This document shows positions 1,243 to 59,868 of a stretch of 59,868 nucleotides of DNA, piece by piece. The position numbers and the translations under genes are program-made. Under the pieces are notes generated by a model. It worked only from the letters and a program-made list of their open reading frames with translations. It made no database searches and was not told the DNA's origin. The stretch is from Defluviitaleaceae bacterium (GTDB taxonomy: Bacteria; Bacillota; Clostridia; Lachnospirales; UBA5962). Each line of letters starts with the position of its first letter. Positions within the stretch are counted from its first letter, which is position 1. Location: NCBI GenBank assembly GCA_009787355.1, contig WRGD01000149.1, positions 1-59,868 of the forward strand, written 5' to 3'.

Positions 1243-1962
1243 ATGAATATTTTAATAATTGGAAAAGGTTCAATGGGAAATGTACTTGCAAAAGAAGTTG
1301 AAATGCTCGGTTATAATTCCATAATTAGTAGAGATTTACAAGATATATATTTAAAAGAAAACAAGAAATTTGATGTAATAATAGATTTTTCACATACTAG
1401 CAATTTGGATAATATTTTTGAATATTCAAAATTGAATAAAACGCCAGTTGTTATTGCAACAACTGGTTTTAATAATTTACAGTTTAATAAAATAAAAGAA
1501 CTTACCAAGTATATACCAGTATTATATAGTGCAAATTATAGTATGGGTATTATTTTGTTAAATCAAGTATCTAAACAAGTATCTAAAGTTTTAAAAGATT
1601 TCGATATAGAAATAATAGAAAAACATCATAAATATAAAATAGATTCACCATCTGGAACAACAAAAATGTTACTTAATTCTATTTGTGAAAATAACGAATA
1701 TAAAATATCAAATGGAAGAGTAGGAGAAAAAAAGAGAACAAAAGAAGAAATAGGAGTACATTCTATTAGAGGAGGTTCTATAGTAGGTGAGCACGAGATA
1801 CTTTTTATAGGAGAAGAAGAGATATTTTCTATAAAACATGAGGCATCTTCCAAATCCATTTTTGCAAAAGGAGCTATTATAGCTGCAAAATGGCTAATAG
1901 GAAAAGAAAACAAATTGTACAACATGGTAGATGTTTTAGAAAACCTTAAAATAAGAGATTAA
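1243..1962 (+). CDS. dapB: 4-hydroxy-tetrahydrodipicolinate reductase
   Basis: DapB reduces 4-hydroxy-tetrahydrodipicolinate with NAD(P)H in the lysine/diaminopimelate pathway, which feeds peptidoglycan. The N-terminus carries the dinucleotide-binding motif GKGSMG (residues 7-12). The catalytic region EIIEKHHKYKIDSPSGTTK (about 122-140) has the His pair and the substrate-binding SGT. RGGSIVGEHEI follows in the C-terminal domain. At 239 residues it is slightly shorter than most (about 250-270), as is common in Clostridia. A GGAAGGA ribosome binding site precedes the ATG. It is monocistronic, with a candidate promoter upstream and a terminator downstream; no other lysine gene is nearby. Confidence 0.95.
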   Translation: MNILIIGKGSMGNVLAKEVEMLGYNSIISRDLQDIYLKENKKFDVIIDFSHTSNLDNIFEYSKLNKTPVVIATTGFNNLQFNKIKELTKYIPVLYSANYSMGIILLNQVSKQVSKVLKDFDIEIIEKHHKYKIDSPSGTTKMLLNSICENNEYKISNGRVGEKKRTKEEIGVHSIRGGSIVGEHEILFIGEEEIFSIKHEASSKSIFAKGAIIAAKWLIGKENKLYNMVDVLENLKIRD

Positions 1963-2047
1963 AAAATTATAGATAAAATTTCTAAATATTAAAACATTGA
2001 TTATACACACCTTAATTGATATAATGTGATTATTATTTTAGTGATTT

Positions 2048-2085
2048 AAAAACTTGACTGTTAATAAAAACTGTCAAGTTTTTTT
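2048..2085 (+). terminator. dapB terminator, abutting the ribF ribosome binding site
   Basis: A stem of about 11 bp (2048-2058 with 2073-2083, core ACTTGAC/GTCAAGT) ends in a T run. The ribF Shine-Dalgarno (GAGGAG) follows within a few bases, so the hairpin may also act as an attenuator in front of ribF. Confidence 0.75.
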
Positions 2086-2094
2086 GAGGAGCTT

Positions 2095-3024
2095 ATGATA
2101 CATATAACTAACGAGAAAATAGAACAAAAAGAACAAACAGCAATAACAATAGGAAATTTTGATGGAATTCATAAAGGTCATATAAAATTAATAGAATCTA
2201 CTATAAAATATGCAAAAGAAAAAAAATTAAAATCTCTTGTATTTTCATTTTATCCTAATCCAAGAGAAGTTATAAAAAATACAAATTTAAATTATATTTT
2301 AACACGTGAAGAAAAGAAAAAATTAATAAAAGATTTAGGAGTAGATGTTTTTGTAGAATATCCATTCGATAAAGAGCTTGCTATTAAAAGTCCAGAATAT
2401 TTTTTAAACGATATTTTAAAAAATAAGTTAAATACAAAAGCAATATTTATAGGTGAAAATTATAGGTTTGGAAATTTGGGAAAAGGTGATTGTAGCACTA
2501 TTTTAAATTTTGGAGATGAAAACGGAATATATGTATCAATAGAAAATTTATTAAACATATCGAGTGAAAAAATAGATTCAACAACTATTAGAAAATATAT
2601 ATTAAGTGGGAATGTAATTAAGGCAAATTTAATGTTAGGTCGTTCATTTTCTTTAAAAGGTGTAGTTTCCATTGGAAATCAAAGGGGTAGAACTTTGGGT
2701 TTTCCTACAGCTAATATTATTCCAAATGATTACAAAAAAATATTACCACAAAAAGGAGTATATATAACTTCTACATTTTTATTTGATATAAACAAAATAT
2801 TCCCAAGTATTACTAATGTTGGACATAACCCGACTTTTGATGATAAATCACTAGTAATAGAAACATTTATATTCAATTTTTCTGAAAATATTTATAATCA
2901 AATAATCGAAATTAATTTTTTTGATAAAATAAGGAATGAGAAGAAATTTAACAATATTGAAGAATTAAAAGAGCAAATTACAAATGATGTTATTTTGGCA
3001 AAAAAATTTCATAAAATATATTAA
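2095..3024 (+). CDS. ribF: Bifunctional riboflavin kinase / FMN adenylyltransferase
   Basis: RibF phosphorylates riboflavin to FMN and adenylates FMN to FAD. The N-terminal nucleotidyltransferase domain (about 15-170) starts with TIGNFDGIHKGH, the HxGH-type motif. The C-terminal riboflavin kinase domain (about 180-305) has GRTLGFPTANI and KGVYIT. Length (309) is normal for the family. The start has a good GAGGA site 4-9 bases upstream. The gene follows dapB after a terminator and is followed by a convergent terminator, so it appears to stand alone. There is no sign of an FMN riboswitch in the short leader. Confidence 0.95.
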   Translation: MIHITNEKIEQKEQTAITIGNFDGIHKGHIKLIESTIKYAKEKKLKSLVFSFYPNPREVIKNTNLNYILTREEKKKLIKDLGVDVFVEYPFDKELAIKSPEYFLNDILKNKLNTKAIFIGENYRFGNLGKGDCSTILNFGDENGIYVSIENLLNISSEKIDSTTIRKYILSGNVIKANLMLGRSFSLKGVVSIGNQRGRTLGFPTANIIPNDYKKILPQKGVYITSTFLFDINKIFPSITNVGHNPTFDDKSLVIETFIFNFSENIYNQIIEINFFDKIRNEKKFNNIEELKEQITNDVILAKKFHKIY

Positions 3025-3054
3025 AAAAATTGCTTATAATCTAAATAAATTTAA

Positions 3055-3105
3055 TTATTTAATCTGTAAGAATATTATTAGGGCGTATTCCTACAGATTA
3101 AATAA
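3055..3105. terminator. Strong inverted repeat between convergent ribF and livF
   Basis: Arms 3055-3074 and 3086-3105 pair over 20 positions with one mismatch around an 11-nt loop. It lies between the ends of two convergent genes, so it probably stops transcription from both sides. Confidence 0.8.
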
Positions 3106-3125
3106 TGGTAATACTCGTTTATTTT

Positions 3126-3827
3126 TTATCCTCCTAAATAAGCTGTTTTTATTATATTGTCTTGTAATAATGATTTTGAATCTCCAGAACTTATTATTTT
3201 TCCAGTTTCTAAAACATATGCCTTGTTAGAAATATTAAGTGCCATCTTTGCATTTTGTTCTACCAATAGTATTGTTATTCCTTTTTTATTCAAATCTTTT
3301 ATTATATCAAATATTTGATGTATAAGCATTGGAGCAAGTCCCATGGATGGTTCATCTAGCATAAGTAGTTTGGGCATAACCATAAGTGCCCTACCAATTG
3401 CAAGCATTTGTTGTTCCCCACCAGACAATGTGCCAGCCGGTTGTTTTCTACGCTCTTTTAACCTTGGAAATTTTGTATAGACAAATTCCAAACGTTCTTT
3501 AAAAGTAGATTTTGGTTGTGTATAATGACCCATTTCCAAGTTTTCATAAACACTCTGACCCAAAAATACACGTCTTCCTTCTGGCACATGAGAAAGACCA
3601 TTTCTTACAATTTTATATGGTTCTGTATTTTCTATATTTTCATTTTTAAATAATATTTTGCCAGATTTACTACGCATAATACCAGATATTGTTTTTAATA
3701 TTGTACTTTTTCCGGCACCATTTGCTCCTATTAGAGATACTATATTCCCTTCTTCGACAGTAAAACTAACATTTTTTACAGAATGTATATTTCCATAATA
3801 TATATTTATGTCTTCAACACTAAGCAA
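3126..3827 (-). CDS. livF: Branched-chain amino acid ABC transporter, ATPase LivF
   Basis: This is one of two cytoplasmic ATPases that energise branched-chain amino acid uptake. Walker A is GANGAGKST, the signature is LSGGEQQ, and Walker B is LLMLDEPSMGLAP, the LivF-type ending. I place the start at a TTG at 3827, seven bases after AAAGGAG, which gives a LivF-sized protein (about 233 residues). The frame can be opened at another TTG at 3845, but that one lacks a site. The chosen start overlaps the livG stop by 8 nt, implying translational coupling. It is the last gene of the livKHMGF operon. Confidence 0.95.
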   Translation of the reverse strand: MLSVEDINIYYGNIHSVKNVSFTVEEGNIVSLIGANGAGKSTILKTISGIMRSKSGKILFKNENIENTEPYKIVRNGLSHVPEGRRVFLGQSVYENLEMGHYTQPKSTFKERLEFVYTKFPRLKERRKQPAGTLSGGEQQMLAIGRALMVMPKLLMLDEPSMGLAPMLIHQIFDIIKDLNKKGITILLVEQNAKMALNISNKAYVLETGKIISSGDSKSLLQDNIIKTAYLGG

Positions 3828-4599
3828 TTTCTTCTCCTTTACCAAGATAGGCTTCTATTACTTTTTGATTGTTTTGTATTTCTATAGGCAAACCATTTGC
3901 GATTATTTTTCCATAATTTAGAACTGTTATTTCACTACATATACCCATTACAAGTTTCATATCATGCTCTATCAATAATATTGCAATTTTAAAATCGTTT
4001 TGAATTTTTTTTATTGTTTCCATCAAATCTTCTGTTTCTTTTGGATTCATTCCTGCTGCTGGTTCGTCTAATAATAATATTTTCGGAGAAGTTGCCAAAG
4101 CTCTTGTTATTTCTAATTTTCTCTGCGTTCCATAAGATAGGTTCCCAGCATTTTCTTTATATATATCTTTCATATCAAAAATCTCTAGTAGATTTAATGC
4201 TATTTCTTTAGCTTTTTTTTCACTTCTAAAATATGTTGGTAATCTTAAAATTGAAGACACTAGATTACAATTTGTTCTATTGTGTAATCCTACCAAAACA
4301 TTTTCAAGAACAGTCATCTTGTTAAATAGCCTTATATTTTGAAATGTACGAGCAACACCAGCCTTGTTTATAGACGTTATAGACATATTTTTCGTATCAT
4401 TACCATTAAACAATATACTTCCCCGTGTTGGTTTATAAACCTTTGTAAGCAAATTGAATATAGTTGTTTTACCTGCCCCATTCGGACCTATAAGCCCACT
4501 TATTTGAGATGATTTTATAGATTTATTAAAATTATCTACAGCAGTAAGTCCTCCAAAATCTATACCTAAATTTTTACATTCTATTACAATGTTAGACAT
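3820..4599 (-). CDS. livG: Branched-chain amino acid ABC transporter, ATPase LivG
   Basis: LivG is the second ATPase of the branched-chain amino acid importer and pairs with LivF. Walker A is GPNGAGKTT, the signature region LSYGTQRKLEI, and Walker B ILLLDEPAAGMNP; the long insert and the GMNP ending are typical of LivG. The start at 4599 (MSNIVIECKN) is preceded by AAAGGAGAG and overlaps the livM stop by 8 nt. The frame is open for 19 codons further upstream, but these lie within livM and lack a site. Length about 259 residues is normal. Confidence 0.95.
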   Translation of the reverse strand: MSNIVIECKNLGIDFGGLTAVDNFNKSIKSSQISGLIGPNGAGKTTIFNLLTKVYKPTRGSILFNGNDTKNMSITSINKAGVARTFQNIRLFNKMTVLENVLVGLHNRTNCNLVSSILRLPTYFRSEKKAKEIALNLLEIFDMKDIYKENAGNLSYGTQRKLEITRALATSPKILLLDEPAAGMNPKETEDLMETIKKIQNDFKIAILLIEHDMKLVMGICSEITVLNYGKIIANGLPIEIQNNQKVIEAYLGKGEEIA

Positions 4600-5575
4600 T
4601 TTCTTCTCTCCTTTTAATTCCGATTTTTTCAAGAAAATACGTAAGTGAAAATTCATAACTACCCATAAGACCAGTAGGTTTAAAAATCATTACTACTATA
4701 AGTAGAAGTGAATATATTATCATTCTATATTCATTTAAAGGTTGTAAAAAAACAGGTAAGCTAATAAGAACTATAGAAGATATTACAGAGCCGAACATAG
4801 ACCCCATACCACCCAAAACAACTATCATTAAAATGTTTACACTTGTCATAAAATCAAAATTATTAGGTACTAATATACCTTGATTTCCTGCCATTAATGC
4901 ACCTGCTATTCCTGCAAAAAATGCAGATACCGCAAATGTAAATACTTTGTAATATATTACATTTACTCCACAACTTCTTGCTGCTATTTCATTATCACGT
5001 ATTGCTATAATTGCTCTACCATGTTTACTTTTCATGATAAGATGTATAACCATTATTGTAATAATTACACATATGTATACAAGTGTAAAAGTAGAATATC
5101 TCGGTATATTTAAAAGTCCTCTTGCTCCATATGTTATATTATCTAAATTGTTAATAACAACACGAATTATTTCTCCAAATCCTAGTGTAATGATAGACAA
5201 ATAATCACCTTTTAATCTAAGTGCAGGTACTCCTATAATAATACCAAAAATAGCGGCTGTAATCCCAGATATAATTAAACCAACAATTATATTTGAAAAT
5301 GATGGTAAAATTCCGAGTCTCCAAAAAAGAGATGCCGAGTAAGCACCAACAGCCATAAAACCAGCATGTCCAAGTGGAAGTTGCCCTAAGTAACCAGCTA
5401 CCATATTTAAAGATACAGAAAGTATAATATAAAATCCTATTTGTATAATAAGAGTATTATGTGCTCTTCCTAAAATATTACTATTTGTAATAAAAAAACC
5501 TATAAAAAGGAAGCTAGTAAGTAAAATAGCAGTTACTATATATCTTATATAAAGTGGTATATTTGTTTCTCGCAT
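4592..5575 (-). CDS. livM: Branched-chain amino acid ABC transporter permease LivM
   Basis: This inner-membrane permease forms the translocation path with LivH. It has about nine to ten hydrophobic segments and the family block LSLNMVAGYLGQLPLGHAGF (about residues 53-72). The C-terminal part carries the EAA-like coupling region ending GGMGSMFGSVI. Length 327 is usual. GGAGG lies 5 bases before the ATG. It sits 8 nt after livH and overlaps livG, so the three are translated together. Confidence 0.94.
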   Translation of the reverse strand: MRETNIPLYIRYIVTAILLTSFLFIGFFITNSNILGRAHNTLIIQIGFYIILSVSLNMVAGYLGQLPLGHAGFMAVGAYSASLFWRLGILPSFSNIIVGLIISGITAAIFGIIIGVPALRLKGDYLSIITLGFGEIIRVVINNLDNITYGARGLLNIPRYSTFTLVYICVIITIMVIHLIMKSKHGRAIIAIRDNEIAARSCGVNVIYYKVFTFAVSAFFAGIAGALMAGNQGILVPNNFDFMTSVNILMIVVLGGMGSMFGSVISSIVLISLPVFLQPLNEYRMIIYSLLLIVVMIFKPTGLMGSYEFSLTYFLEKIGIKRREENV

Positions 5576-5583
5576 AAATCCTC

Positions 5584-6462
5584 CTATACTTTTTCTGCTA
5601 TATTTTTACCCATAATTCCTGTTGGTTTAAACATAAGAACTATTATTAAAAGTAAAAATACAACACCGTCTGTCCATCCAGATAAACCAAAAGTAATAAC
5701 TAAAACTTCCAAGATTCCTATTGTATACCCTCCTATCATAGCCCCAGGTATAGAACCTATACCACCAACAATAGCAGCAACAAATGCTTTTAAACCCAGT
5801 ATACCACCAATATTTGGACTTATTAAAGGAAACCTTAAAGCATATAAAATAGAACCAATACCTGCAAGTGAAGCTCCTACAGCAAAAGTAAAAGTTACTA
5901 CATTATTTACATTTACTCCCATAAGTCTTGCAGCATCTAAATCTTGGCTTACAGCACGCATAGCCTTACCAAGTCTAGTTCGTTTAACAATAAATGTAAG
6001 TACAATCATACTTACTATAGTTACAATAATAGTTATAATAGAATTATTGTTTATATTAATACCAAAAAAGTTAAATACAGTAGGCTCTAAAAGCAAATGA
6101 ACTGGAAACGGTCTTCCACTAGCACCAAAAAAGAATTGAGATAAATTTTGAAGTAAGATAGATACGCCTATAGCAGTAATAAGTACAGATAGTCTTGGTG
6201 CATTTCTAAGGGGTGTATATGTAACTTTTTCTATTATTATAGCAAGTAATGTAGAAGTTATTATTGTAAGAGTAATAACTAACCAAGGGTCGAAACTAGC
6301 AGTAAGAGAAAACAAAGCAACATATGCACCTACCATTAAAATATCTCCATGTGCAAAATTAAGTAATCTTATTATTCCATAAACCATACTATAACCAAGA
6401 GCGATTAAAGCATATATTGAACCTAATTGCAAACCATTTATAAGTTGAGAAAAAAACAACAT
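5584..6462 (-). CDS. livH: Branched-chain amino acid ABC transporter permease LivH
   Basis: LivH is the partner permease of LivM. The N-terminus has the family motif LIALGYSMVYGIIRLLNFAHGD (about 18-39), given here as a family landmark. The C-terminal half has the coupling region VGGIGSIPGAMIGG. Length 292 is normal and there are eight or so hydrophobic helices. AAAGGAGA precedes the ATG. It is separated from livK by about 117 nt containing a GC-rich hairpin, which probably sets a lower permease level than binding-protein level. Confidence 0.94.
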   Translation of the reverse strand: MLFFSQLINGLQLGSIYALIALGYSMVYGIIRLLNFAHGDILMVGAYVALFSLTASFDPWLVITLTIITSTLLAIIIEKVTYTPLRNAPRLSVLITAIGVSILLQNLSQFFFGASGRPFPVHLLLEPTVFNFFGININNNSIITIIVTIVSMIVLTFIVKRTRLGKAMRAVSQDLDAARLMGVNVNNVVTFTFAVGASLAGIGSILYALRFPLISPNIGGILGLKAFVAAIVGGIGSIPGAMIGGYTIGILEVLVITFGLSGWTDGVVFLLLIIVLMFKPTGIMGKNIAEKV

Positions 6463-6506
6463 TATTGTCTCCTTTTAAAATTAGAAAATTAAATAATATA
6501 AAATAG

Positions 6507-6525
6507 GGGCAGCCATAAGCTGCCC
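6507..6525 (-). terminator. Hairpin between livK and livH (attenuator or mRNA stabiliser)
   Basis: A 7-bp GC-rich stem, GGGCAGC/GCTGCCC, closes a 5-nt loop. In the direction of livK transcription it is followed by only a weak U-rich stretch, so partial termination or protection of the livK mRNA end is more likely than full termination. Confidence 0.6.
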
Positions 6526-6579
6526 ATTTTTTTATTTGAATAACCAAAAAACTTAAAAAATAATTTTAGTTATTAAGTC

Positions 6580-7746
6580 TTAGAAGTTACCCCAAAAAAC
6601 TTCTTCTCCATTAACTATTTGAATAATAAATGCAGTTTTTTGTGGATTGTTATAGTTATCAAAAACAATATGACCTGTAACAGCATCTATATCTGTATTT
6701 GCCATATTTGCTATCACAGCATTTCTAAAATTATTATTAGATGGAGAATATCCATCATTTACTGCCTGTTCTATAGCATATATTAATATTTTGGCTGCGT
6801 CGTATGCCTGTGCTGCAAACATATTTGGAACAGTTTCAAATCTCAACTGGTAATTTGCAACAAAATCCTGTACTATAGGTGTTGTACTTTGTGCATAAAA
6901 TCCAGATAAGAAAAACGCTCCTTCTATAGGACTAGGGTCTCCAATGTAAGATAAAGCACCATCCCAACCATCAGCCCCGAGCATAACTGTATTTATACCA
7001 GCAAGAGCACTTTGTGGACCTATTAATGCTATATCTTGATGATAAGCAGGTATAAAAAAAACATCTGGATTTGTAGTAGCTATATTTGTTAATTGACCTA
7101 GAAAATCTACAGTATCATTTCCAAAAGATTCTTCTGCAACTATTGTTATTCCTAATTCTGTAGCTCTTTGTGAAAATGCATCACGTAAACCAATAGAATA
7201 ATCTGTTTCACTATTAAATAGTATAGCTGCTGTATTTGCACCAATTATTTCTCTCGCAAATTCTGCCATTTTTTCGCCCTGAAAGGGGTCTATAAAACTT
7301 GCTCTAAAAACATTTCCCCAAGGTTCTTCTGTCGCTGTATTTATTGTTACATTTCTGTGAGTAGATGTAGCAGAAATCATTGGCATATTATCTTCATTTG
7401 CAAAAGGAGCAACGGCAAGAGTAGCTCCACTTGTAACACTACCAAGTATTGCAGCTACATTTTGGTCCATAAGCCAGTTATAACCTACTACAGCTTCTGT
7501 AGGGGTACCTTGCTCATCAAAAATTACATATGATATTTGTAGTCCTCCACGTGCGTTGTATTCATCTATAAAAAGTCTTAATCCTTCGTAAACAGAAACA
7601 CCAAAATGTGCAACAGAACCAGTTAGAGGAGCTAATATACCAATAGTAACTTCGTTTGTATTATTTTGATTGTTTTCTGCAGAGCCACAACTTGCAAAAA
7701 ATAATATAATAAAATTAACATTTAAAAATTTCAATATTTTTTTCAT
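6580..7746 (-). CDS. livK: Branched-chain amino acid binding lipoprotein
   Basis: This is the extracellular substrate-binding protein of the LIV importer, a type I periplasmic-binding fold. A signal peptide (about 1-19) ends at the lipobox FASC, so the mature protein should be lipid-anchored at Cys20. The segment IGILAPLTGSVAHFGVS (about 35-51) is the typical first strand and ligand loop. Length 388 is normal. It is the first gene of the operon behind a near-consensus promoter, with a strong G-rich site before the ATG. Ligand could be Leu/Ile/Val or related compounds; the sequence does not decide. Confidence 0.94.
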   Translation of the reverse strand: MKKILKFLNVNFIILFFASCGSAENNQNNTNEVTIGILAPLTGSVAHFGVSVYEGLRLFIDEYNARGGLQISYVIFDEQGTPTEAVVGYNWLMDQNVAAILGSVTSGATLAVAPFANEDNMPMISATSTHRNVTINTATEEPWGNVFRASFIDPFQGEKMAEFAREIIGANTAAILFNSETDYSIGLRDAFSQRATELGITIVAEESFGNDTVDFLGQLTNIATTNPDVFFIPAYHQDIALIGPQSALAGINTVMLGADGWDGALSYIGDPSPIEGAFFLSGFYAQSTTPIVQDFVANYQLRFETVPNMFAAQAYDAAKILIYAIEQAVNDGYSPSNNNFRNAVIANMANTDIDAVTGHIVFDNYNNPQKTAFIIQIVNGEEVFWGNF

Positions 7747-7795
7747 TATTTACCCCCGTATATGTATCTTGTTAAAAAAAAATTAAAGTTTATAT

Positions 7796-7824
7796 ACTAT
7801 ACATTTTTTACCCATGCATGTCAA
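7796..7824 (-). promoter_or_regulatory. Sigma-A promoter of the livKHMGF operon
   Basis: On the minus strand TTGACA (7824-7819) and TATAGT (7801-7796) are 17 bp apart, about 50 bp before the livK start. This is close to consensus and fits strong expression of the binding protein. Confidence 0.8.
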
Positions 7825-7872
7825 TAGTGGTTTTTACAATCTAATTTTCTCTATTTAGATATGACCTAAATT

Positions 7873-7901
7873 TTGCAACTATTTTTTAAGTATGCTAGAA
7901 T
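7873..7901 (+). promoter_or_regulatory. Candidate sigma-A promoter for the 7957 membrane protein
   Basis: TTGCAA (7873-7878) and TAGAAT (7896-7901) are 17 bp apart, about 55 bp before the ATG. It is divergent from the livK promoter. Confidence 0.6.
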
Positions 7902-7956
7902 AAATATGTTAAAAGATAAGCAAAATTATAAACAACAATATTAAATAGGGAATAAA

Positions 7957-8388
7957 ATGAATAATAAAAAAACCAAAATACTTCTAACTATACTAATGTT
8001 TCTATCTTTAGCTACTACAATCTACTTTGTTGCTATATATAGAAATATCAATCTTCATATATTATTTGGAATTATAACATCTACTTTACTTACAGTAATA
8101 TTTTTCATGCAAAGGCAGTGGTTATCACACGCTTCAAAGTCATTTAGAAGTGGTAAAATAGGAGAAAATAATAAAAAAATATTTTTGATAAACATACTTT
8201 TATTTAAAATATGGTTTTTTGCAATAATGTCAGGGATAATATCTACTCTTGTATATTTCAATATAATAAGTTTTTTTGAAGATGTCTATACTCTACATGG
8301 TCTTACTGCATACTTTGGAAGTTTACTTTTAATAATATATCTGGGATTTAATATATATTTAAAATATTTAACAAAAACAAAAAAGTAA
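7957..8388 (+). CDS. Four-helix membrane protein (DUF4405-like)
   Basis: This 143-residue protein has four hydrophobic segments (about 7-27, 33-52, 81-103 and 113-137). Histidines lie at or near helix ends in the pattern NLHILFGI and TLHGLTAYFG, reminiscent of small DUF4405/cytochrome b-like membrane proteins, but heme binding is only a guess. The start has a weak purine-rich site. It is transcribed alone from its own promoter, divergent from the liv operon and upstream of rpmB. Function unknown. Confidence 0.6.
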   Translation: MNNKKTKILLTILMFLSLATTIYFVAIYRNINLHILFGIITSTLLTVIFFMQRQWLSHASKSFRSGKIGENNKKIFLINILLFKIWFFAIMSGIISTLVYFNIISFFEDVYTLHGLTAYFGSLLLIIYLGFNIYLKYLTKTKK

Positions 8389-8402
8389 ATAAAAACTTTG
8401 AC

Positions 8403-8431
8403 TTGCATAGTACGCAATAATTTGGTATCAT
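8403..8431 (+). promoter_or_regulatory. rpmB promoter (extended -10)
   Basis: TTGCAT (8403-8408) and TATCAT (8426-8431) are 17 bp apart, with TG one base ahead of the -10. It lies about 70 bp before the rpmB start. Confidence 0.65.
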
Positions 8432-8499
8432 GTGAGAAGCTGTGGCATTTTGAAAAATTAAAAAATAAGCAATACTGCAAAATTTAGGAGGTACAAAAA

Positions 8500-8706
8500 A
8501 TGGCAAATAGATGTAATATATGTGATAAAGGCACAACAACAGGACATAGAATTAGTATAACACGTAGTCAGGTAAGTAGGCGTGCAAATAGAACTTGGAA
8601 ACCAAATTTAAAAAAAATAAAAGTTGTGTTACCAAACGGAACTGTAACAACTTCAAAAGTTTGTACAGCTTGCATAAGGTCAGGCAAAATAAAACGTGCT
8701 TCTTAG
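8500..8706 (+). CDS. rpmB: Large subunit ribosomal protein L28
   Basis: L28 is a small 50S ribosomal protein. The 68 residues include CNIC near the N-terminus and CTAC near the C-terminus, the four-cysteine zinc-ribbon form of L28. The motifs GHRISITRSQVSRRANRTW and VCTACIRSGKI are typical. AGGAGG lies seven bases ahead of the ATG. It is monocistronic, flanked by its own promoter and a terminator, as is usual in Clostridia. Confidence 0.97.
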   Translation: MANRCNICDKGTTTGHRISITRSQVSRRANRTWKPNLKKIKVVLPNGTVTTSKVCTACIRSGKIKRAS

Positions 8707-8720
8707 TTACAAGTTTATAA

Positions 8721-8796
8721 AAACCAAAGCATAGTTACACTAGTGGTTAATTCGAATTACTTCTAAAAACTACTTACTGTTTGCTTTGGTTTTTTT
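8721..8796 (+). terminator. rpmB terminator
   Basis: A 10-bp stem (8721-8730 with 8783-8792, core ACCAAAGC/GCTTTGGT) encloses a loop of about 50 nt and ends in a T run. The loop contains a perfect 12-bp palindrome with TTCGAA at its centre, so the structure is a stacked double hairpin. Confidence 0.7.
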
Positions 8797-8845
8797 TATA
8801 TTTGCACAAAGTTACCTTTAAAAATTATCTAATGAAAGGAACTAT

Positions 8846-10069
8846 ATGCATACAACAAAAGAACAAATGGAAAAAGTAATATTAATCGGGTTTTCAGAAT
8901 TATCAGAGCTATCAGAACTTGCAAAAACAGCTAACTTAAATGTAATAGGTGAACTAATACAACCAAGAGAAATGCCTCACCCCAAAAGCTATTTTGGTAA
9001 AGGCAAATTAGAAGAACTAAAACTATACGCTACAGAGTTAAATGCTACAATGGTAATAGCAGATGATGAGCTATCAAGCAATCAAATAAAGCATATGAGC
9101 GAAGTTTTAGAAATAAAAGTAATAGATAGAACAATGCTCATTTTAGATATTTTTGCAAGTAATGCAAAAAGTGCAGAAGCTATAGCACAAGTAGAAATAG
9201 CACAACAACGCTATAATCTAGCAAGACTAACAGGTTTCGGTATAAATATGTCTAGGTTAGGTGCAGGTATTGGTACTAAAGGGCCTGGAGAAAAAAAACT
9301 AGAGACTGATAGAAGGGCAATAAGAGCTAGGATAGACGAACTTTCAAAAGAACTAGAAAACTTAGAAAACCACAGAGCTACACTTCGTAAATCTAGAATG
9401 AAAAACAGTGAAATTATATTATCTTTAGTTGGATATACAAATGCTGGAAAATCCACTCTTATGAATTATCTTACAAATGCAAATATTCTTTCAGAAAATA
9501 AACTTTTCTCTACACTAGATACAACAACTAGAAAAATGCAGGTCGATTCCCGTGAAATACTTATTACAGACACAGTAGGTTTTATAAAAAAACTTCCCCA
9601 TACTCTTATAAAAGCATTTAGGTCTACACTCGAAGAATTAAAATACGCAACTATTATATTACACATTGTAGATGTATCAAACAAAAACCACAAAGAACAT
9701 ATGGATGTTGTGTACGAAACATTAGAGCATTTAGAATGTAATAATATTCCTATTATAACTGTTTTCAATAAAATAGATAATACAAGCAAGATAGATATTT
9801 TTACGAACGACGAAAAAGCAAGTAATATAGTAGGAATTAGTGCAAAAACAGGTGAAAACATAGATGAATTACTAAAAATAATAGAAAAAACTTTAGGAAA
9901 CCTTACAACAAATCTAGAGCTATTAATACCATATAGTCAAGGAGATGTTTTAAGTTCTCTACACAAAGATGAATTGATAATAGAAAAAGAATATCAAAAT
10001 GACGGAATTTTTGTAAAAGCAAATGTAGACAATAAAAATATTCAGAAATATAAAAATTTCTGTGTGTAG
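8846..10069 (+). CDS. hflX: Ribosome-associated GTPase HflX
   Basis: HflX is a translational GTPase that binds the 50S subunit and splits stalled ribosomes. The N-terminal HflX domain has YFGKGKLEEL and GPGEKKLETDRR. The G domain begins near residue 195 with GYTNAGKS (G1), followed by DTVGFIKKLPHTLI (G3 and switch II) and FNKID (G4). Length 407 is in the usual range. GAAAGGA precedes the ATG. It is monocistronic with a terminator about 50 nt after the stop. Confidence 0.95.
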   Translation: MHTTKEQMEKVILIGFSELSELSELAKTANLNVIGELIQPREMPHPKSYFGKGKLEELKLYATELNATMVIADDELSSNQIKHMSEVLEIKVIDRTMLILDIFASNAKSAEAIAQVEIAQQRYNLARLTGFGINMSRLGAGIGTKGPGEKKLETDRRAIRARIDELSKELENLENHRATLRKSRMKNSEIILSLVGYTNAGKSTLMNYLTNANILSENKLFSTLDTTTRKMQVDSREILITDTVGFIKKLPHTLIKAFRSTLEELKYATIILHIVDVSNKNHKEHMDVVYETLEHLECNNIPIITVFNKIDNTSKIDIFTNDEKASNIVGISAKTGENIDELLKIIEKTLGNLTTNLELLIPYSQGDVLSSLHKDELIIEKEYQNDGIFVKANVDNKNIQKYKNFCV

Positions 10070-10120
10070 CATAAAATAAACAAATCTACACAATAATATA
10101 ATATCCTAAAATATTTAAAT

Positions 10121-10174
10121 AAAAGTGAGCAATTTCAAAATGATTTTATAACATTTAGAAAATGCTTACTTTTT
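10121..10174 (+). terminator. hflX terminator
   Basis: The arms AAAAGTGAGCA and TGCTTACTTTT pair through 11 positions (one G-U) around a loop of about 30 nt and run into a T stretch. Confidence 0.7.
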
Positions 10175-10609
10175 TATTTTAAAATACTTCTCGAACAAAA
10201 AAATTTTACCGAAAATTGATTTTTTAATTGATAAATCATAAAAAAAATGTCCAAATATTGATTTAAATTTTTGTTAAATTTGAAAGATTAAAATAAGGTA
10301 TATATATAATTTATAAAAAAATTCACTAAATTTTCAGTTTATACAAATAAATTTTTAGCGATTTTTAACAAAATATTAAACAAAATAATGAATTTTAATT
10401 TCAACACTGTCATTTTTTAGACAGTGCAATAGTCATCGTTCGACAAGAAAACGGACTTTTTTCATCATATATGTCGAAATGTTTTTGTTGAATAAATGGG
10501 GTATGTCAATTATTATATTAATGTGCTTGAGAAACGGCACAAAAAAAATCAGTATGATTTGAAAATTAACAAAAAAAATAAAAAAATAATTTTTTAGGAG
10601 ACCAGGGAT
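10175..10609 (+). promoter_or_regulatory. Long AT-rich leader upstream of the DUF6514-like gene
   Basis: This 435-nt stretch holds no convincing gene. A candidate promoter, TTGAAA (10280-10285) with TATAAT (10305-10310) at 19 bp, would give a leader of about 290 nt. The leader has a 7-bp hairpin, CACTGTC/GACAGTG (10405-10411 with 10420-10426), and a spaced inverted pair TTCGACA/TGTCGAA (10439-10445 with 10472-10478). A regulatory RNA element is possible but I do not recognise a known riboswitch. Confidence 0.4.
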
Positions 10610-11014
10610 ATGGTAGAGAAATTTTTGCAAGAATCAATATTAGTAAGAACGGAAGACAACAAGGTATTAAAATTAAATTACTATGTAACAAAGAACAAAT
10701 CATCTGTGTATGGAATTGCTATTAATAAATACCAAAAATTAGACAGAGATATTGTAGAACCAAAAAAATCAAAATTGATATATGATTTGTCTAAAGATTA
10801 TTTATCTTTTGAAAGTAAAAACGATGAAAACTTTGCTTTAGTAGAAAGTGCAGAAACTGTAGGAATTACATATTCTAGAACTGAAGCTTTCCGAATATGT
10901 AATTTACTTGCAACACGTAGTGTAATGCCTTGTACAGTTGATGAAATAATAGAAGACTTAGAAATATATTCTGGTAGTGTATTAGACTCAGATAATTCAA
11001 AATTGTTGGGTTAA
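10610..11014 (+). CDS. DUF6514-like protein
   Basis: This 134-residue cytoplasmic protein has the layout of DUF6514 proteins of Clostridia. There is an N-terminal strand pair, LNYYVTKNKSSVYGIAI. The C-terminal part, TYSRTEAFRICNLLATRSV followed by MPCTVDEIIED, matches the family's usual '..LLARNTVTPxxLxDVVED' pattern. The middle (about 45-75) is longer than usual. No catalytic residues are known for the family and its role is unknown. TAGGAGA lies nine bases before the ATG. It is monocistronic, with a long structured leader and a terminator. The family call rests on pattern memory. Confidence 0.6.
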   Translation: MVEKFLQESILVRTEDNKVLKLNYYVTKNKSSVYGIAINKYQKLDRDIVEPKKSKLIYDLSKDYLSFESKNDENFALVESAETVGITYSRTEAFRICNLLATRSVMPCTVDEIIEDLEIYSGSVLDSDNSKLLG

Positions 11015-55225: not shown

Positions 55226-56830
55226 TTACGGTAGTGTAATTAAATTATTTTGTGGAATAGGTTCTTTATCCTGATGAGATATTCTAATAAAATCTACATC
55301 ATATTTTTCTTTTATTCTGGTAATAATAGAGTTAAGTGTATTCGTATCTAAATTTGCCTCTATCTCATCTAATAAAATTATGTTTGGAGAAGTTACTAAT
55401 GCCCTAGCTATGGCTAATCGTATTTTTTCGCCTGATGAAAGATTATTTCCTCTTTCTTCAACTAAAAAGTATCCATTTTTTTCTATATGTGTTACTATCC
55501 TGTCTAATTTGAGAAGTTTCATTAATTCTAAAAGCTCATTATTAGATATATCAACTCTCTCTAAGGATAAATTACCTAATATACTATCTTCGAAAAACAA
55601 AGGAATTTGTGGTACATACCCTATTTTTCTACTAACAGATTGTTTTGTATATGTTTTAATATCGTATCCATTTATTTTTATAGTACCTTTTTGTGGTTCT
55701 ATAATTTGATTTAATAGTTTAAAAAGAGTGCTTTTACCAGAACCATTTACACCTTTAATCCATATATCATTTGGAAATGTCAATTCAAAAGTTTTGTCTA
55801 TAAGTATAGGCTTATCTGAATTGTAATAAAAATAAACATTATCAAACGAAATATTTTTTACATATTCAAGTTTTTTCAAGCTCTCATTAGATAAATCATC
55901 TATTTCTTTAATTTTCATATTTACATTTTTTATACTAATTATTGTTTTTTGAAAATTTGCAATATAGCCTACAATTGATGAAAATAAAAATATTAATCCA
56001 TCAATCATCTGAAATATAAGTAAAAATACACCGAATGTAATATTCCCATAAGTTAAATTAATTGCCCCTATAATGATGACAGCTATATTAAAGCCACCAT
56101 TAAAGCATATATCACTTACTAGCTTAGAAATATTCTGTGTTCTATTTAATTTATTATCTTTTTTAAAAATATCTTCATTAATTTTTTTTGAATGATTAAT
56201 ATTTTGAGAAATAGTACCAAATATTTTTAATAAAGTGAAATTATTTAAAATTTCAACAATATTTTTAATCCTGCTATCGTCAATATTTCTTCGTTCTTTA
56301 GAATATTTGCTAATTTGTTTCGAGAAAAACATATTAGCAAACAAAAAAAAGATACCCAATAATATTAAAATTATCAATATTGTAATTGACCTTGTACCTA
56401 TTACAACCATCGATACTATACCCGAAATAATAGCTTGAAATAATACAATAGTAGACCATCCTATTAAAGATGAAGCTTCTGCAACATCTGTTTTTAAAAT
56501 ATTTATTTCTTTACTTGAGTGATATTCTGAATCTATCCATTTATTAGAATTAATTATATTTTTAAAAACAAGTGTCCCGAGATTCTTCATAAACTTATAT
56601 TGATTTATCTCCATCATATATCCAAATAAAGGGATTAAATAAATAAAATAAATAATCATTCCAAATAAAATAATAATAAAATGTAGCAAATTTTCACTCT
56701 CATTATCGAAAATGTACATTAAACTTAGTCCGATAAAAAGACTATGAAAAACTGCTTGCATTGAATTAAAAATAATTCCTACAGCACCTTTAACTGTTAT
56801 ATTTTTTAATATAATTTTTGCTATATTCAT
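55226..56830 (-). CDS. ABC transporter, fused permease/ATPase (peptide exporter half B)
   Basis: About 534 residues. Six TM helices (about 15-300) precede an ATPase domain with Walker A GVNGSGKST near 360, Q-loop YVPQIPLFFEDS, signature LSSGEKIRLAIARAL, Walker B IILLDEIEANLD and switch His in ISHQD. All ATPase motifs look functional. I take the ATG at 56830, which overlaps the preceding stop as ATGA. No N-terminal C39 peptidase is present. It should pair with the neighbouring half-transporter as a heterodimer exporting the small peptide. Confidence 0.85.
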   Translation of the reverse strand: MNIAKIILKNITVKGAVGIIFNSMQAVFHSLFIGLSLMYIFDNESENLLHFIIILFGMIIYFIYLIPLFGYMMEINQYKFMKNLGTLVFKNIINSNKWIDSEYHSSKEINILKTDVAEASSLIGWSTIVLFQAIISGIVSMVVIGTRSITILIILILLGIFFLFANMFFSKQISKYSKERRNIDDSRIKNIVEILNNFTLLKIFGTISQNINHSKKINEDIFKKDNKLNRTQNISKLVSDICFNGGFNIAVIIIGAINLTYGNITFGVFLLIFQMIDGLIFLFSSIVGYIANFQKTIISIKNVNMKIKEIDDLSNESLKKLEYVKNISFDNVYFYYNSDKPILIDKTFELTFPNDIWIKGVNGSGKSTLFKLLNQIIEPQKGTIKINGYDIKTYTKQSVSRKIGYVPQIPLFFEDSILGNLSLERVDISNNELLELMKLLKLDRIVTHIEKNGYFLVEERGNNLSSGEKIRLAIARALVTSPNIILLDEIEANLDTNTLNSIITRIKEKYDVDFIRISHQDKEPIPQNNLITLP

Positions 56831-58476
56831 TTTGTCCACTCATTAAAATTTAGTATTACTTCACATGAAGCTGCTGTGTTCATATTATGCGTTACCAAAA
56901 TAACTGATTTGTCTGTATGTCTTATAAAATCACTAAATATTTCTTCACTCTCTACATCTAAATGAGACGTTGGTTCATCTAATATAAGTATTTCAGAATC
57001 TTTATATAAAAGTCTGGATAAACATATTTTTAATTTCTGTCCTTCAGAAAGATTCTTTCCAAATTGACCAACAGTATTATATAAAGTATTTTTATTTACA
57101 ATATCAGACATATTTAATGTTTTAGAAATATCTTCTATTCTTTCTAAGTCTTTTTGCTCAAGTAATTCATCAGAAAAAGTAATATTATAGGCTAAAGTAT
57201 TATCTATTAAATTATAGTTTCCATCAAAATAAGATATTTGTTCCCAATTATTTTTCCTTAAAAGATAAGAGTCTCTACCATAGATATTTATACTACCTTT
57301 TGTAGGTTTGTAAATACCCATTATTAATTTTAAAAATGTAGATTTTCCAATTCCTGATTCCCCAATTATAGCTATTTTTTCACCTTTATTTAATTTGAAA
57401 TCTACATTTTCAAATATAGGAGTTGCATTTTCAAATCCAAAAGACATATTTTTAATATCAACAACTATTTTAGATTCTTTCTCTAAATGATTTTCTCTAT
57501 CTTGTTCATAATCTTCTTTATGCTCAAATTTATTATTAATAATATTTAAAGTGCTAAATATTAATTCTCTTACTCCAAAATAATTTACATATGACTGTAA
57601 CATTTTACCAAAAGGTAAAGATACCATATTAACCAAAAGTAATATTGATGTAAATTCTCCATAATTCAATTCATCATAAAAGATGTATGCAAGACCAATA
57701 AGAACAATAGTAGGTAAGTATTCGTTCATCAGGGCAGGTCTATATGATTTTAATTTTTCTTTAGTAAATTTAAAATACAAATCTTCTCTTTTTTCTAATA
57801 ATTCATTATGCTTACGAACTGCATAATTTTGCGTATTACTTGCACTAATATATTCTCTGTTCTCAAGTATATTCTTTTCAAAAGAAGATATATTTTTTTG
57901 TATAGGTATAATTTCACTTATTATATTAGATATATTATTCTTTCTAAAAATACTTACGATAGATGAAATTATTACAATAATTATAATAATAGCGGCTATT
58001 CTAATATTTAAGTAAATAAGAGCTGTAAACGAAAAAATAAACATTAATGGCATGAAAATTATATTTTGTGTGTCATTTTTTAAAAAATTTCTTATCCTAT
58101 CTGAAACGTCTCTATATTTGCTCAAAAATTCATCTTTATATTTTTCAAAACTATCAATTTCTCTATTTTCTAAATGTGATAATAGATGTTTATGCATTTT
58201 ATTACAAAAATTTTCTACTTGAAAATCAAAAAATTGGTTTCTTAAATATGTAAATATTTGTTGTAAAAATATAAATATAATAAACCAAAAAATTAATGAA
58301 ATCTCAATCCTACCAAATTCACCTACTGCTGAATTGATTAGAGGATAAACTATAAGCACTGTTACAATATTAAAAATAGCCGAAAAAATAATAACAATAA
58401 AAAACTTGATTCTCATAGTTATTATATTTTTAAATATCACTTTTATTGGTTCTGTTACTTTAGCTAATTTATTCAT
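56827..58476 (-). CDS. ABC transporter, fused permease/ATPase (peptide exporter half A)
   Basis: 549 residues with six TM helices (about 20-300) and an ATPase domain: Walker A GESGIGKST near 368, signature LSEGQKLKICLSRLL, Walker B ILILDEPTSHLD and switch His in LVTHN. The Q-loop region reads ISYFDGNYNLID, with no Gln at the usual place. This suggests a degenerate site, as in many heterodimeric exporters. There is no C39 peptidase domain, in line with a separate protease gene 9 nt upstream. It overlaps half B by four bases. Confidence 0.85.
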   Translation of the reverse strand: MNKLAKVTEPIKVIFKNIITMRIKFFIVIIFSAIFNIVTVLIVYPLINSAVGEFGRIEISLIFWFIIFIFLQQIFTYLRNQFFDFQVENFCNKMHKHLLSHLENREIDSFEKYKDEFLSKYRDVSDRIRNFLKNDTQNIIFMPLMFIFSFTALIYLNIRIAAIIIIIVIISSIVSIFRKNNISNIISEIIPIQKNISSFEKNILENREYISASNTQNYAVRKHNELLEKREDLYFKFTKEKLKSYRPALMNEYLPTIVLIGLAYIFYDELNYGEFTSILLLVNMVSLPFGKMLQSYVNYFGVRELIFSTLNIINNKFEHKEDYEQDRENHLEKESKIVVDIKNMSFGFENATPIFENVDFKLNKGEKIAIIGESGIGKSTFLKLIMGIYKPTKGSINIYGRDSYLLRKNNWEQISYFDGNYNLIDNTLAYNITFSDELLEQKDLERIEDISKTLNMSDIVNKNTLYNTVGQFGKNLSEGQKLKICLSRLLYKDSEILILDEPTSHLDVESEEIFSDFIRHTDKSVILVTHNMNTAASCEVILNFNEWTK

Positions 58477-58485
58477 TCTATACGT

Positions 58486-59193
58486 CTACTCTCTCTTATT
58501 AATTTTAAAATTAAATTTATTTAAAATATTATAAATACTTTTTAGCATATATTCTTTTGAACTTATTAACTCTTTTATTTCATCGTAGGAACAAGAGCAG
58601 TTGAGTGCTTCAAATAAAAACAAACTTATAATTGAACAAAAAATACTACTTCCGTTTAACCAAATTCGCCTATTTGAATCCCAATAAACATTTAGATATA
58701 TTTTTCTATTAATTATTATTCCATCTTGGTTAATATCAAGTATCTCTTTTAAATCTTCAACACTTACACTTATAACTGTATCGATTTTAGAAGGAAAGAC
58801 ATTCTGTATTTGTTTATCTCTTGCAGCCACTATATAAATTCCTTTTTCATACATTACTCTACAAAGATACTTCATTTCTAAAATATCTTTATTTTCATAT
58901 TCACTAATAAAACCACAACTAATATTTACAACTCTAGCTATAAGTTTATCGGAGATATATTCCAAAATCAAATTAAATTCTTTTATAGATGTCTTATTAT
59001 TTACAGGAAAGAAAATAATCTCACAATCTTTATTTACCGATAAAAAAGCCTCACAAATTGCATTTCCATGACCACGTTGATTAATCATACTATCAGATTT
59101 TATAGACAAAATATTTATTATTGTAATTCTATCTGAATATAAAGATTTAAAATGTTCACTTATTGGACAATCTATTATACAAATAGTATTCAA
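58486..59193 (-). CDS. Minimal subtilase-like (S8) peptidase, probably cytoplasmic leader peptidase
   Basis: 235 residues, starting at TTG five bases after GGAGGG. S8 landmarks are present in order: Asp8 in CIIDCPI, His42 in RGHGNAI, VVNISCGF near 88-95, and Ser183 in NGSSIFCS. At the position of the oxyanion-hole Asn ('AAGN') it reads AARD, so this residue is changed. There is no signal peptide or propeptide, and it is shorter than the usual 270 or more residue catalytic domain. In the operon it most likely cleaves the small peptide before export, or it has lost activity and only binds it. Confidence 0.7.
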   Translation of the reverse strand: MNTICIIDCPISEHFKSLYSDRITIINILSIKSDSMINQRGHGNAICEAFLSVNKDCEIIFFPVNNKTSIKEFNLILEYISDKLIARVVNISCGFISEYENKDILEMKYLCRVMYEKGIYIVAARDKQIQNVFPSKIDTVISVSVEDLKEILDINQDGIIINRKIYLNVYWDSNRRIWLNGSSIFCSIISLFLFEALNCSCSYDEIKELISSKEYMLKSIYNILNKFNFKINKRE

Positions 59194-59229
59194 ATTACCC
59201 TCCTCTAAATGAATTATTTAAAAAATTAT

Positions 59230-59264
59230 AATATAGAAGTTGTTAGCCGCAATACTTCTATATT
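59230..59264 (-). terminator. Attenuator hairpin between the peptide gene and the peptidase gene
   Basis: AATATAGAAGT and ACTTCTATATT (59230-59240 with 59254-59264) form an 11-bp stem with a 13-nt GC-rich loop. In the direction of transcription it is followed by a run of six U residues. Partial read-through would give much more precursor than processing enzymes. Confidence 0.75.
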
Positions 59265-59494
59265 ATTTATTAAATATCATAAATATTTCTGTAATAAACA
59301 AGTGATTATACATTATATCAATTTACTAAATATATCAAAATATACTTTAGATTTTATAGCATTTCTAATTGTTAAAAGTTTAACAAAAAAATGCACCAAA
59401 AACTTAATATTTTTATATACTAAAATTAAAACTGTTTAATACGAGTAAAATCAAGCTGTAACTACATATTTCAAGTTATAAAGAAAATAAGATA

Positions 59495-59668
59495 CTAAAA
59501 TGGGCTTATTGAATTTCCACTACAGTGGCATTGTCCAAAAAACACTAAGCCATCGTCTTTTTTTAGTTCAATTTCCTTGATACCTAATTTATTCATTGCA
59601 TCTTTTCTTTCATTGCTATTTGTTGTTGTATTAACTATTTCTTTTAATTCATTAACTTTGTCTGACAT
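59495..59668 (-). CDS. Putative RiPP/bacteriocin precursor peptide, 57 residues
   Basis: A short ORF with an excellent GGAGG eight bases before its ATG. It begins MSDKVNELKEIVNTTTNSNE, a charged helical leader-like part, continues through RKDAMNKLGIKEIELKKDDG, and ends LVFFGQCHCSGNSISPF. The only two cysteines form C-H-C in the last eleven residues, next to Ser, Gly and Asn, as in modified core peptides. It lies immediately upstream of the subtilase-like protein and a two-part ABC exporter on the same strand. I do not recognise a named precursor family. Core borders and modification are unknown. Confidence 0.7.
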   Translation of the reverse strand: MSDKVNELKEIVNTTTNSNERKDAMNKLGIKEIELKKDDGLVFFGQCHCSGNSISPF

Positions 59669-59772
59669 AATTTTTTCCTCCGTATAGTAGGTTAGTGGTT
59701 AATTACTTAATATTAAAATACATTTATGCGGCTAACATTTTCTTTTAGTCGTTTAAGTCGTGTTGTGTCGAG

Positions 59773-59868
59773 ACTTGTTATTACGACTTGTTATTACGAC
59801 TTGTTATTACGACTTGTTATTACGACTTGTTATTACGACTTGTTATTACGACTTGTTATTACGACTTG
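59773..59868. repeat. 13-bp tandem repeat array running off the window
   Basis: The unit ACTTGTTATTACG is repeated seven times without change from 59773 to 59863, and an eighth copy begins at 59864 and is cut by the window edge. The period is not a multiple of three. The array lies about 105 bp upstream of the peptide gene start. Total length cannot be known from here. Confidence 0.95.

What the first reader, a model, noticed from the sequence alone, without database searches (positions are those of the whole stretch)
59495..59668. Overlooked 57-residue precursor with a C-terminal CHC tail
The ORF is below usual length cut-offs but has an ideal ribosome binding site, a Lys/Glu-rich leader-like half and a tail GQCHCSGNSISPF in which both cysteines are two residues apart. 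Two close cysteines with Ser and Asn suggest thioether, thiazoline or disulfide chemistry. I could not match it to sactipeptide, lanthipeptide, SCIFF or thiopeptide precursors that I know.
Basis: partly seen in the sequence, partly recalled or inferred. Interest (0 to 1): 0.72.

Follow-up and report, generated by a model that had tools for sequence, protein, structure and literature searches.

The report
Orphan exported-peptide precursor with protease, exporter
A tiny gene at the end of a contig most likely encodes a 57-residue peptide that a neighbouring protease trims and a pair of transporters exports; no relative of it was found, and the enzyme that might chemically modify its two cysteines is not in view because the contig breaks off just upstream.

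Summary
In detail: 59668..59495 (-) is a 57-codon ORF with GGAGG 8 nt before ATG, a charged 40-residue front and an uncharged tail ending GQCHCSGNSISPF. The ORF with its ribosome site is unlikely by chance (4 of 5000 shuffles). It heads an operon with a QhpE-like subtilase (Asp8, His42, Ser183 kept) and two overlapping ABC exporter genes. Best reading: a leader-bearing precursor cut inside the cell and exported. The chemistry is open. No radical-SAM, LanC or YcaO match lies on this contig, but the contig ends 200 nt upstream in a perfect 13-bp tandem array, so the neighbour is lost. Distant subtilase relatives sit beside radical-SAM genes, and two of those loci also hold Cys-containing peptides. 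The same genome carries about a dozen other RiPP-like clusters. Verdict: a plausible, lineage-restricted precursor of a known general kind; modification unproven.

The parts
59495..59668 (-). 57-aa ORF, proposed precursor peptide; charged leader (1-40), neutral tail (41-57) with Cys47-His-Cys49
   Evidence: no family match
59677..59681 (-). ribosome-binding site GGAGG, 8 nt before ATG
59220..59266 (-). 13-bp A/U-rich hairpin (arms 59228-59240 / 59254-59266) followed by a U-run, between the peptide gene and the subtilase gene; possible leaky terminator or attenuator
   Evidence: perfect arms; z -3.5; 1 of 200 shuffles as stable; not reported by the consensus scan
58486..59193 (-). QhpE-like subtilase, 235 aa, TTG start, no room for a signal peptide or propeptide before catalytic Asp8
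   Evidence: NF049966 E 2.6e-9, below cut-off; Asp8, His42, Ser183 invariant in 5 of 5
56827..58476 (-). ABC exporter half 1 (549 aa), without a peptidase domain
55226..56839 (-). ABC exporter half 2 (537 aa), GTG start, overlaps half 1 by 13 nt
59772..59868 (.). perfect 13-bp tandem array (GACTTGTTATTAC, 7.5 copies) at which the contig ends; the upstream neighbour is lost here

Best explanation
The ORF is the precursor of a small exported peptide. Shown by sequence: a 57-codon ORF with a strong ribosome site, followed in the same direction by a compact subtilase with an intact catalytic triad and by two overlapping ABC exporter genes without their own peptidase domain. Inferred: the charged N-terminal part (about 40 residues) is a leader; the subtilase, which seems cytoplasmic like QhpE, cuts it off; the two ABC proteins form a heterodimeric exporter for the Cys-x-Cys tail (about 13-17 residues). 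A hairpin after the peptide gene would lower transcription of the downstream genes and so give more precursor than enzyme. A modification of the cysteines is likely (slightly better than even), by an enzyme encoded beyond the array or elsewhere in this RiPP-rich genome, but that step is not shown.
For: ORF with ribosome site beyond chance, 4 of 5000 shuffles. Operon order and spacing: 9 nt between subtilase and ABC 1, 13-nt overlap of ABC 1 and ABC 2. Best family match of the protease is QhpE, which cuts a 28-residue leader inside the cell before export by an ABC transporter (passages of PMC7876137). Cytoplasmic S8 leader proteases are known otherwise too (ElxP; passages of PMC10885120). Of the small subtilase relatives from other genomes found, 4 of 4 lie beside radical-SAM genes (G056, G629, G678, G741) and 3 of 4 beside ABC genes; 2 of 4 (G678, G741) encode a 51-54-aa Cys-containing peptide directly before the protease. 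The same genome holds about a dozen other RiPP-like clusters, most with small precursors.
Against: The 57-mer has no detectable relative and no significant similarity to the two analogous precursors (p 0.26 and 0.22). No modifying enzyme found on the contig. NF049966 at E 1e-8 rings in 134 of 256 genomes of the order, in none over its cut-off, so the QhpE match is close to a superfamily-level signal. Pfam reports no family for the protease, and a single-sequence structure model was too poor to confirm the fold (pLDDT 52.6; no Foldseek match at E 0.001). No promoter-like site was found before the gene.
Confidence: 0.62

Rival explanations
1. Radical-SAM RiPP proper (a special case of the best explanation): the cysteines are joined to other residues by thioether bonds made by a radical-SAM enzyme encoded just beyond the array, as the G678 and G741 loci suggest.
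For: Radical-SAM genes beside 4 of 4 small relatives of the protease; the contig is cut upstream.
Against: In the two loci with a peptide next to the protease, the radical-SAM genes precede the peptide in the same direction; here the 200 nt before the ATG hold no gene, only a short gap and the array. Five of the six other contigs with peptide-type radical-SAM genes in this genome have their own small peptide beside them (C109 is the exception). No Asp or Glu follows the cysteines, unlike the peptides of G678 and G741.
Confidence: 0.3
2. Unmodified or disulfide-bonded exported peptide (signal or bacteriocin): cut by the subtilase, exported, cysteines oxidised outside.
For: No modifying enzyme in the visible operon; the peptide gene seems to be first in the operon; two closely spaced cysteines.
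Against: The dedicated intracellular subtilases that I could document act on modified peptides (QhpE, ElxP); relatives of the protease sit with radical-SAM genes.
Confidence: 0.27
3. The subtilase serves the class III lanthipeptides of the same genome in trans and the 57-mer is a by-stander or a modulator.
For: Three LanKC-sized genes with a LanC-like match in open frames of 855-872 aa, with no small subtilase noticed in the stretches I read; S8 proteases process some class III peptides (AmyP; PMC10885120 passages).
Against: The protease gene lies in one operon with the 57-mer and its own exporter pair; the class III clusters carry their own ABC genes.
Confidence: 0.07
4. The 57-mer is a separately encoded propeptide or inhibitor of the subtilase, which itself lacks a propeptide.
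For: Catalytic Asp is residue 8, so the protease has no propeptide of its own.
Against: Does not explain the neutral Cys-x-Cys tail or the two exporters; the G678 protease also starts directly, yet has a Cys-containing peptide before it.
Confidence: 0.04
5. The ORF is not translated.
For: No relatives; length alone is within chance (272 of 5000); codon preference only moderately gene-like.
Against: Strong ribosome site plus length is rare by chance (4 of 5000); position at the head of an operon.
Confidence: 0.05

Closest known systems
qhp system (quinohemoprotein amine dehydrogenase maturation: QhpC, QhpE, QhpF)
   Same: Small leader-bearing polypeptide, intracellular subtilisin-like protease, ABC exporter; best family match of the protease is QhpE.
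   Different: Protease far below the QhpE cut-off (36.7 against 165 bits); no qhpD on the contig; the substrate is a 57-mer, not an enzyme subunit; two ABC halves.
Clostridial radical-SAM peptide clusters with a small subtilase (G678, G741; PapB/CcpM-like maturases, all below cut-off)
   Same: Order peptide, subtilase, ABC; peptide of 51-57 aa with charged front and cysteines in the rear.
   Different: Those have two radical-SAM genes upstream and a Cys/Asp-containing tail; sequence similarity of the peptides to the 57-mer is at chance level.
Subtilase-processed lanthipeptides (NisP, ElxP, AmyP)
   Same: S8 protease removes the leader; ElxP is cytoplasmic.
   Different: No LanC-like match on the contig; Ser lies after the Cys residues, against the usual order (recalled).

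Membership tests
RiPP with subtilase leader protease | small precursor ORF with ribosome site in the same operon | tested here: met
RiPP with subtilase leader protease | dedicated protease with catalytic triad | tested here: met
   Asp8, His42, Ser183 invariant in 5 of 5 aligned proteases; activity not tested
RiPP with subtilase leader protease | exporter in the operon | tested here: met
   two ABC halves
RiPP with subtilase leader protease | modifying enzyme in the cluster | tested here: inconclusive
   no radical-SAM, LanC or YcaO match on the contig, but the contig ends 200 nt upstream
RiPP with subtilase leader protease | core conserved across relatives | tested here: inconclusive
   no relative found
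qhp system | QhpE over the curated cut-off | tested here: not met
   36.7 against 165 bits
qhp system | QhpD radical-SAM maturase in the genome | tested here: not met
   of the ten candidate maturases scanned the best match to TIGR03906 is 242.7 bits against 453 (C109); the other radical-SAM genes were assigned by eye
SCIFF, CLI_3235-type or other catalogued Cys-rich precursors | match to a precursor model | tested here: not met
   0 families in NCBIfam and Pfam at E 1; PHROGs only 0.0042 to an unknown family
class III lanthipeptide | LanKC gene beside the precursor | tested here: inconclusive
   no LanC-like match on the window's contig, but the upstream side is lost
class III lanthipeptide | L-x-L-Q type leader as in the genome's own class III precursors | tested here: not met
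   motif seen in the C46, C68 and C151 peptides, absent from the 57-mer

The most novel reading that the evidence does not exclude
A new precursor class whose operon carries only a QhpE-like, perhaps single-turnover, subtilase and a heterodimeric exporter, and whose Cys-His-Cys tail is modified in trans by a maturase borrowed from one of the genome's other RiPP clusters, or is exported unmodified as a metal-binding Cys-His-Cys peptide.
Probability: 0.13. Interest if true: 0.65.

Novelty: new variant of a known kind. Interest (0 to 1): 0.4.

Why it matters
If confirmed it adds an unclassified precursor family to the scheme of leader, intracellular subtilase and ABC exporter, in a genome that is dense in small modified-peptide clusters. 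Its practical lesson is that such short ORFs can stay unannotated when they have no relatives and sit at contig ends.

Tried and rejected
Searches that found nothing: precursor in NCBIfam, Pfam, PHROGs (best PHROG E 0.0042, not pursued); in 146 related genomes (at E 10, 26 of 146 ring, only the own genome convincingly, next best E 0.102); in its own genome beyond itself; in genome contigs, viral contigs, phages and plasmids. The subtilase: plasmids, viral contigs, genome contigs. The scans need an exact 8-residue match first and only reach close relatives. Sensitive searches with the subtilase: 5 of 392 genomes of the order, 5 of 391 of the class, 1 of 398 of the phylum, the own genome included each time; the three draws overlap. 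ABC half 1: 1 of 392 (the own genome) at E 1e-50. Three matches and one lie in open frames of 608-619 aa and were set aside as ordinary large subtilases without reading their surroundings.

Of the 30 loci offered, I read four with shorter frames (L116, L123, L124, L126): one has an ABC-like start after the protease (L116), none a clear Cys peptide; L107 of that call is the G056 protease that I had already read as L026/L041; the other 25 were not read.

A visual alignment of the 57-mer with the G678 and G741 peptides (L-x-I-K/E ... GQ-C) looked tempting, but shuffles gave p 0.26 and 0.22, and 0.18 for the sum; rejected as evidence. Pairwise scores against ten other small peptides gave low p for C143 (0.002), C68 (0.005) and C102 (0.032) among ten tests, the first two in the charged front; taken as composition or chance, not as kinship.

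A 17-nt inverted repeat flanks the peptide gene (59235-59251 / 59727-59743); shuffle p 0.0225, too weak to claim an invertible element. The idea that tandem arrays mark RiPP operons was tested with chosen-in-steps contig starts: 0 of 18 (coding repeats and a poly-T not counted) and 4 of 20 (poly-A, dinucleotide and coding repeats not counted) have such arrays, and I saw no RiPP genes beside those four. So arrays are general in this genome, though they look commoner at RiPP contigs (7 of 13 that I counted, where not all ends of those contigs were read). Rfam: nothing at E 1. PDB sequences: nothing. Paper searches were read as listings only, apart from the passages cited; I make no claim that the system is absent from print.

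Full report
What is there. The window is the whole of contig C149 of a 2.25-Mb genome in 152 contigs. On the minus strand, 59668..59495 is a 57-codon ORF, MSDKVNELKEIVNTTTNSNERKDAMNKLGIKEIELKKDDGLVFFGQCHCSGNSISPF. GGAGG stands 8 nt before its ATG. Residues 1-40 carry 17 charged residues, residues 41-57 none.

Is it real. In 5000 dinucleotide shuffles of 59194-59771, 272 hold an ATG ORF of 57 or more codons, but only 4 hold one preceded by a ribosome site. In the whole window, 7 ATG ORFs of 25-109 codons with such a site lie outside longer ORFs; several of the other six are recognisable housekeeping or flagellar genes (my recognition). Codon preference is above most chance ORFs but 10 of 165 exceed it. 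I take translation as very likely.

Neighbours. After a 300-nt gap with a 13-bp hairpin and a U-run (not reported by the consensus scan) come, in the same direction, a 235-aa protease (TTG start, 59193..58486), an ABC exporter half (58476..56827) and a second half that overlaps it by 13 nt (56839..55226). The protease's best family is QhpE at E 2.6e-9, below the curated cut-off; Pfam gives nothing. Aligned with four small subtilases from other genomes it keeps Asp8, His42 and Ser183 (5 of 5). Where two relatives have Asn-Tyr or Asn-Leu in a turn it has Lys, so the oxyanion arrangement may differ (my reading). NF049966 rings in 134 of 256 genomes of the order at E 1e-8 and in none over its cut-off, so the QhpE match is not specific. 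A single-sequence model of the protease was poor (pLDDT 52.6) and matched nothing; the assignment therefore rests on sequence.

The upstream side. The contig ends in a perfect 13-bp array at 59772-59868; a 20-mer of it is found nowhere else in the assembly. Whatever lies upstream is lost. On this contig there is no radical-SAM match among 18 in the genome, no LanC-like match among 6 and no YcaO match among 2.

Relatives. The 57-mer has none that I could find. The protease has distant small relatives, and I read the surroundings of four. G678 and G741: two radical-SAM genes, a 54- or 51-aa Cys-containing peptide, the protease, an ABC gene; the two peptides are clearly related to each other (score 64). 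G629: radical-SAM, acyl-carrier-like protein, a 29-aa peptide with Cys at its end, two ABC genes, protease. G056: radical-SAM, acyl-carrier-like protein, protease at the contig end, no ABC gene or peptide identified. So this kind of small subtilase keeps company with maturases, exporters and, in part, Cys peptides. But the 57-mer is not demonstrably homologous to those peptides (p 0.26 and 0.22).

The genome. It is dense in RiPP-like clusters. C109 has a PapB-type maturase over its cut-off, without a precursor noticed nearby. C145 has a Clo7bot/CefB-like maturase (below cut-off) next to a 36-aa Cys-rich peptide. C92, C56 and C102 have radical-SAM genes with 29-36-aa peptides. C103 has two B12-type radical-SAM genes with two near-identical small peptides. 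C46, C68 and C151 have LanKC-sized genes with class III-like peptides; C124 has a 1402-aa protein with a LanC-like part. C143 has a YcaO protein over the cut-off; C38 has a weak YcaO match below it. This makes both a lost neighbour and modification in trans conceivable.

How it probably works. By analogy with QhpC, QhpE and QhpF (leader cut by a subtilisin-like, single-turnover protease before export by an ABC transporter; passages of PMC7876137), the charged front is a leader, the subtilase removes it and the ABC pair exports the tail. The modification step is open: I give about even odds or slightly better that the cysteines are modified, with a radical-SAM thioether the single most likely chemistry, and about one in four that the peptide leaves unmodified or as a disulfide. 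The confidences of the first two rivals overlap with the best explanation, of which they are two versions.

Verdict. Observation confirmed; precursor reading partly supported; specific chemistry untested; conservation test not possible with the collections at hand. I file it as a new variant of a known kind, because the precursor fits no catalogued family and the visible operon lacks a maturase, with the caveat that the missing flank may turn it into an ordinary new member.

Noticed in passing
L027 (G000:C103) 1578-10999: RiPP-like cluster: two near-identical peptides (59-66 aa) before two B12-type radical-SAM genes, a glycosyltransferase-like gene, a PIG-L-type deacetylase-like gene and two ABC genes (the last labels are my reading).
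   Followed up: partly
L053 (G000:C145) 403-1994: 36-aa Cys-rich peptide MKILIEANTSQDSSVKVSPRCGPCSHLGGCTNISAS directly before a Clo7bot/CefB-like radical-SAM maturase.
   Followed up: partly
L059, L060, L062, L061 (G000:C46, C68, C151, C124): Three LanKC-sized genes with class III-like precursors, and a 1402-aa protein with a LanC-like part and an ABC-like start beside a 39-aa peptide.
   Followed up: partly
window 59772-59868 and the starts of C103, C92, C46, C68, C124, C38 (L027, L045, L059, L060, L061, L064): Perfect tandem arrays of 10-23-bp units at contig ends next to RiPP operons; arrays of 4-15-bp units also at C143, C147, C67, C77 and C106 without a RiPP gene noticed directly beside them. 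C46, C103, C143 and C147 share one 10-bp unit.
   Followed up: partly
window 59235-59251 and 59727-59743: 17-nt inverted repeat (88% complementary) flanking the peptide gene; the inner copy lies largely in the loop of the hairpin before the subtilase gene; shuffle p 0.0225.
   Followed up: partly
L064 (G000:C38) 369-611: 80-aa peptide in a cluster with a weak YcaO match contains SGNVESISPF, close to the 57-mer's end SGNSISPF; whole-peptide shuffle p 0.143, so perhaps chance.
   Followed up: partly
L041 (G056:C53) 2670-3173: Reading frame that looks like a NusG/RfaH-type antitermination protein upstream of the radical-SAM, acyl-carrier-like and subtilase genes (my recognition).
   Followed up: no
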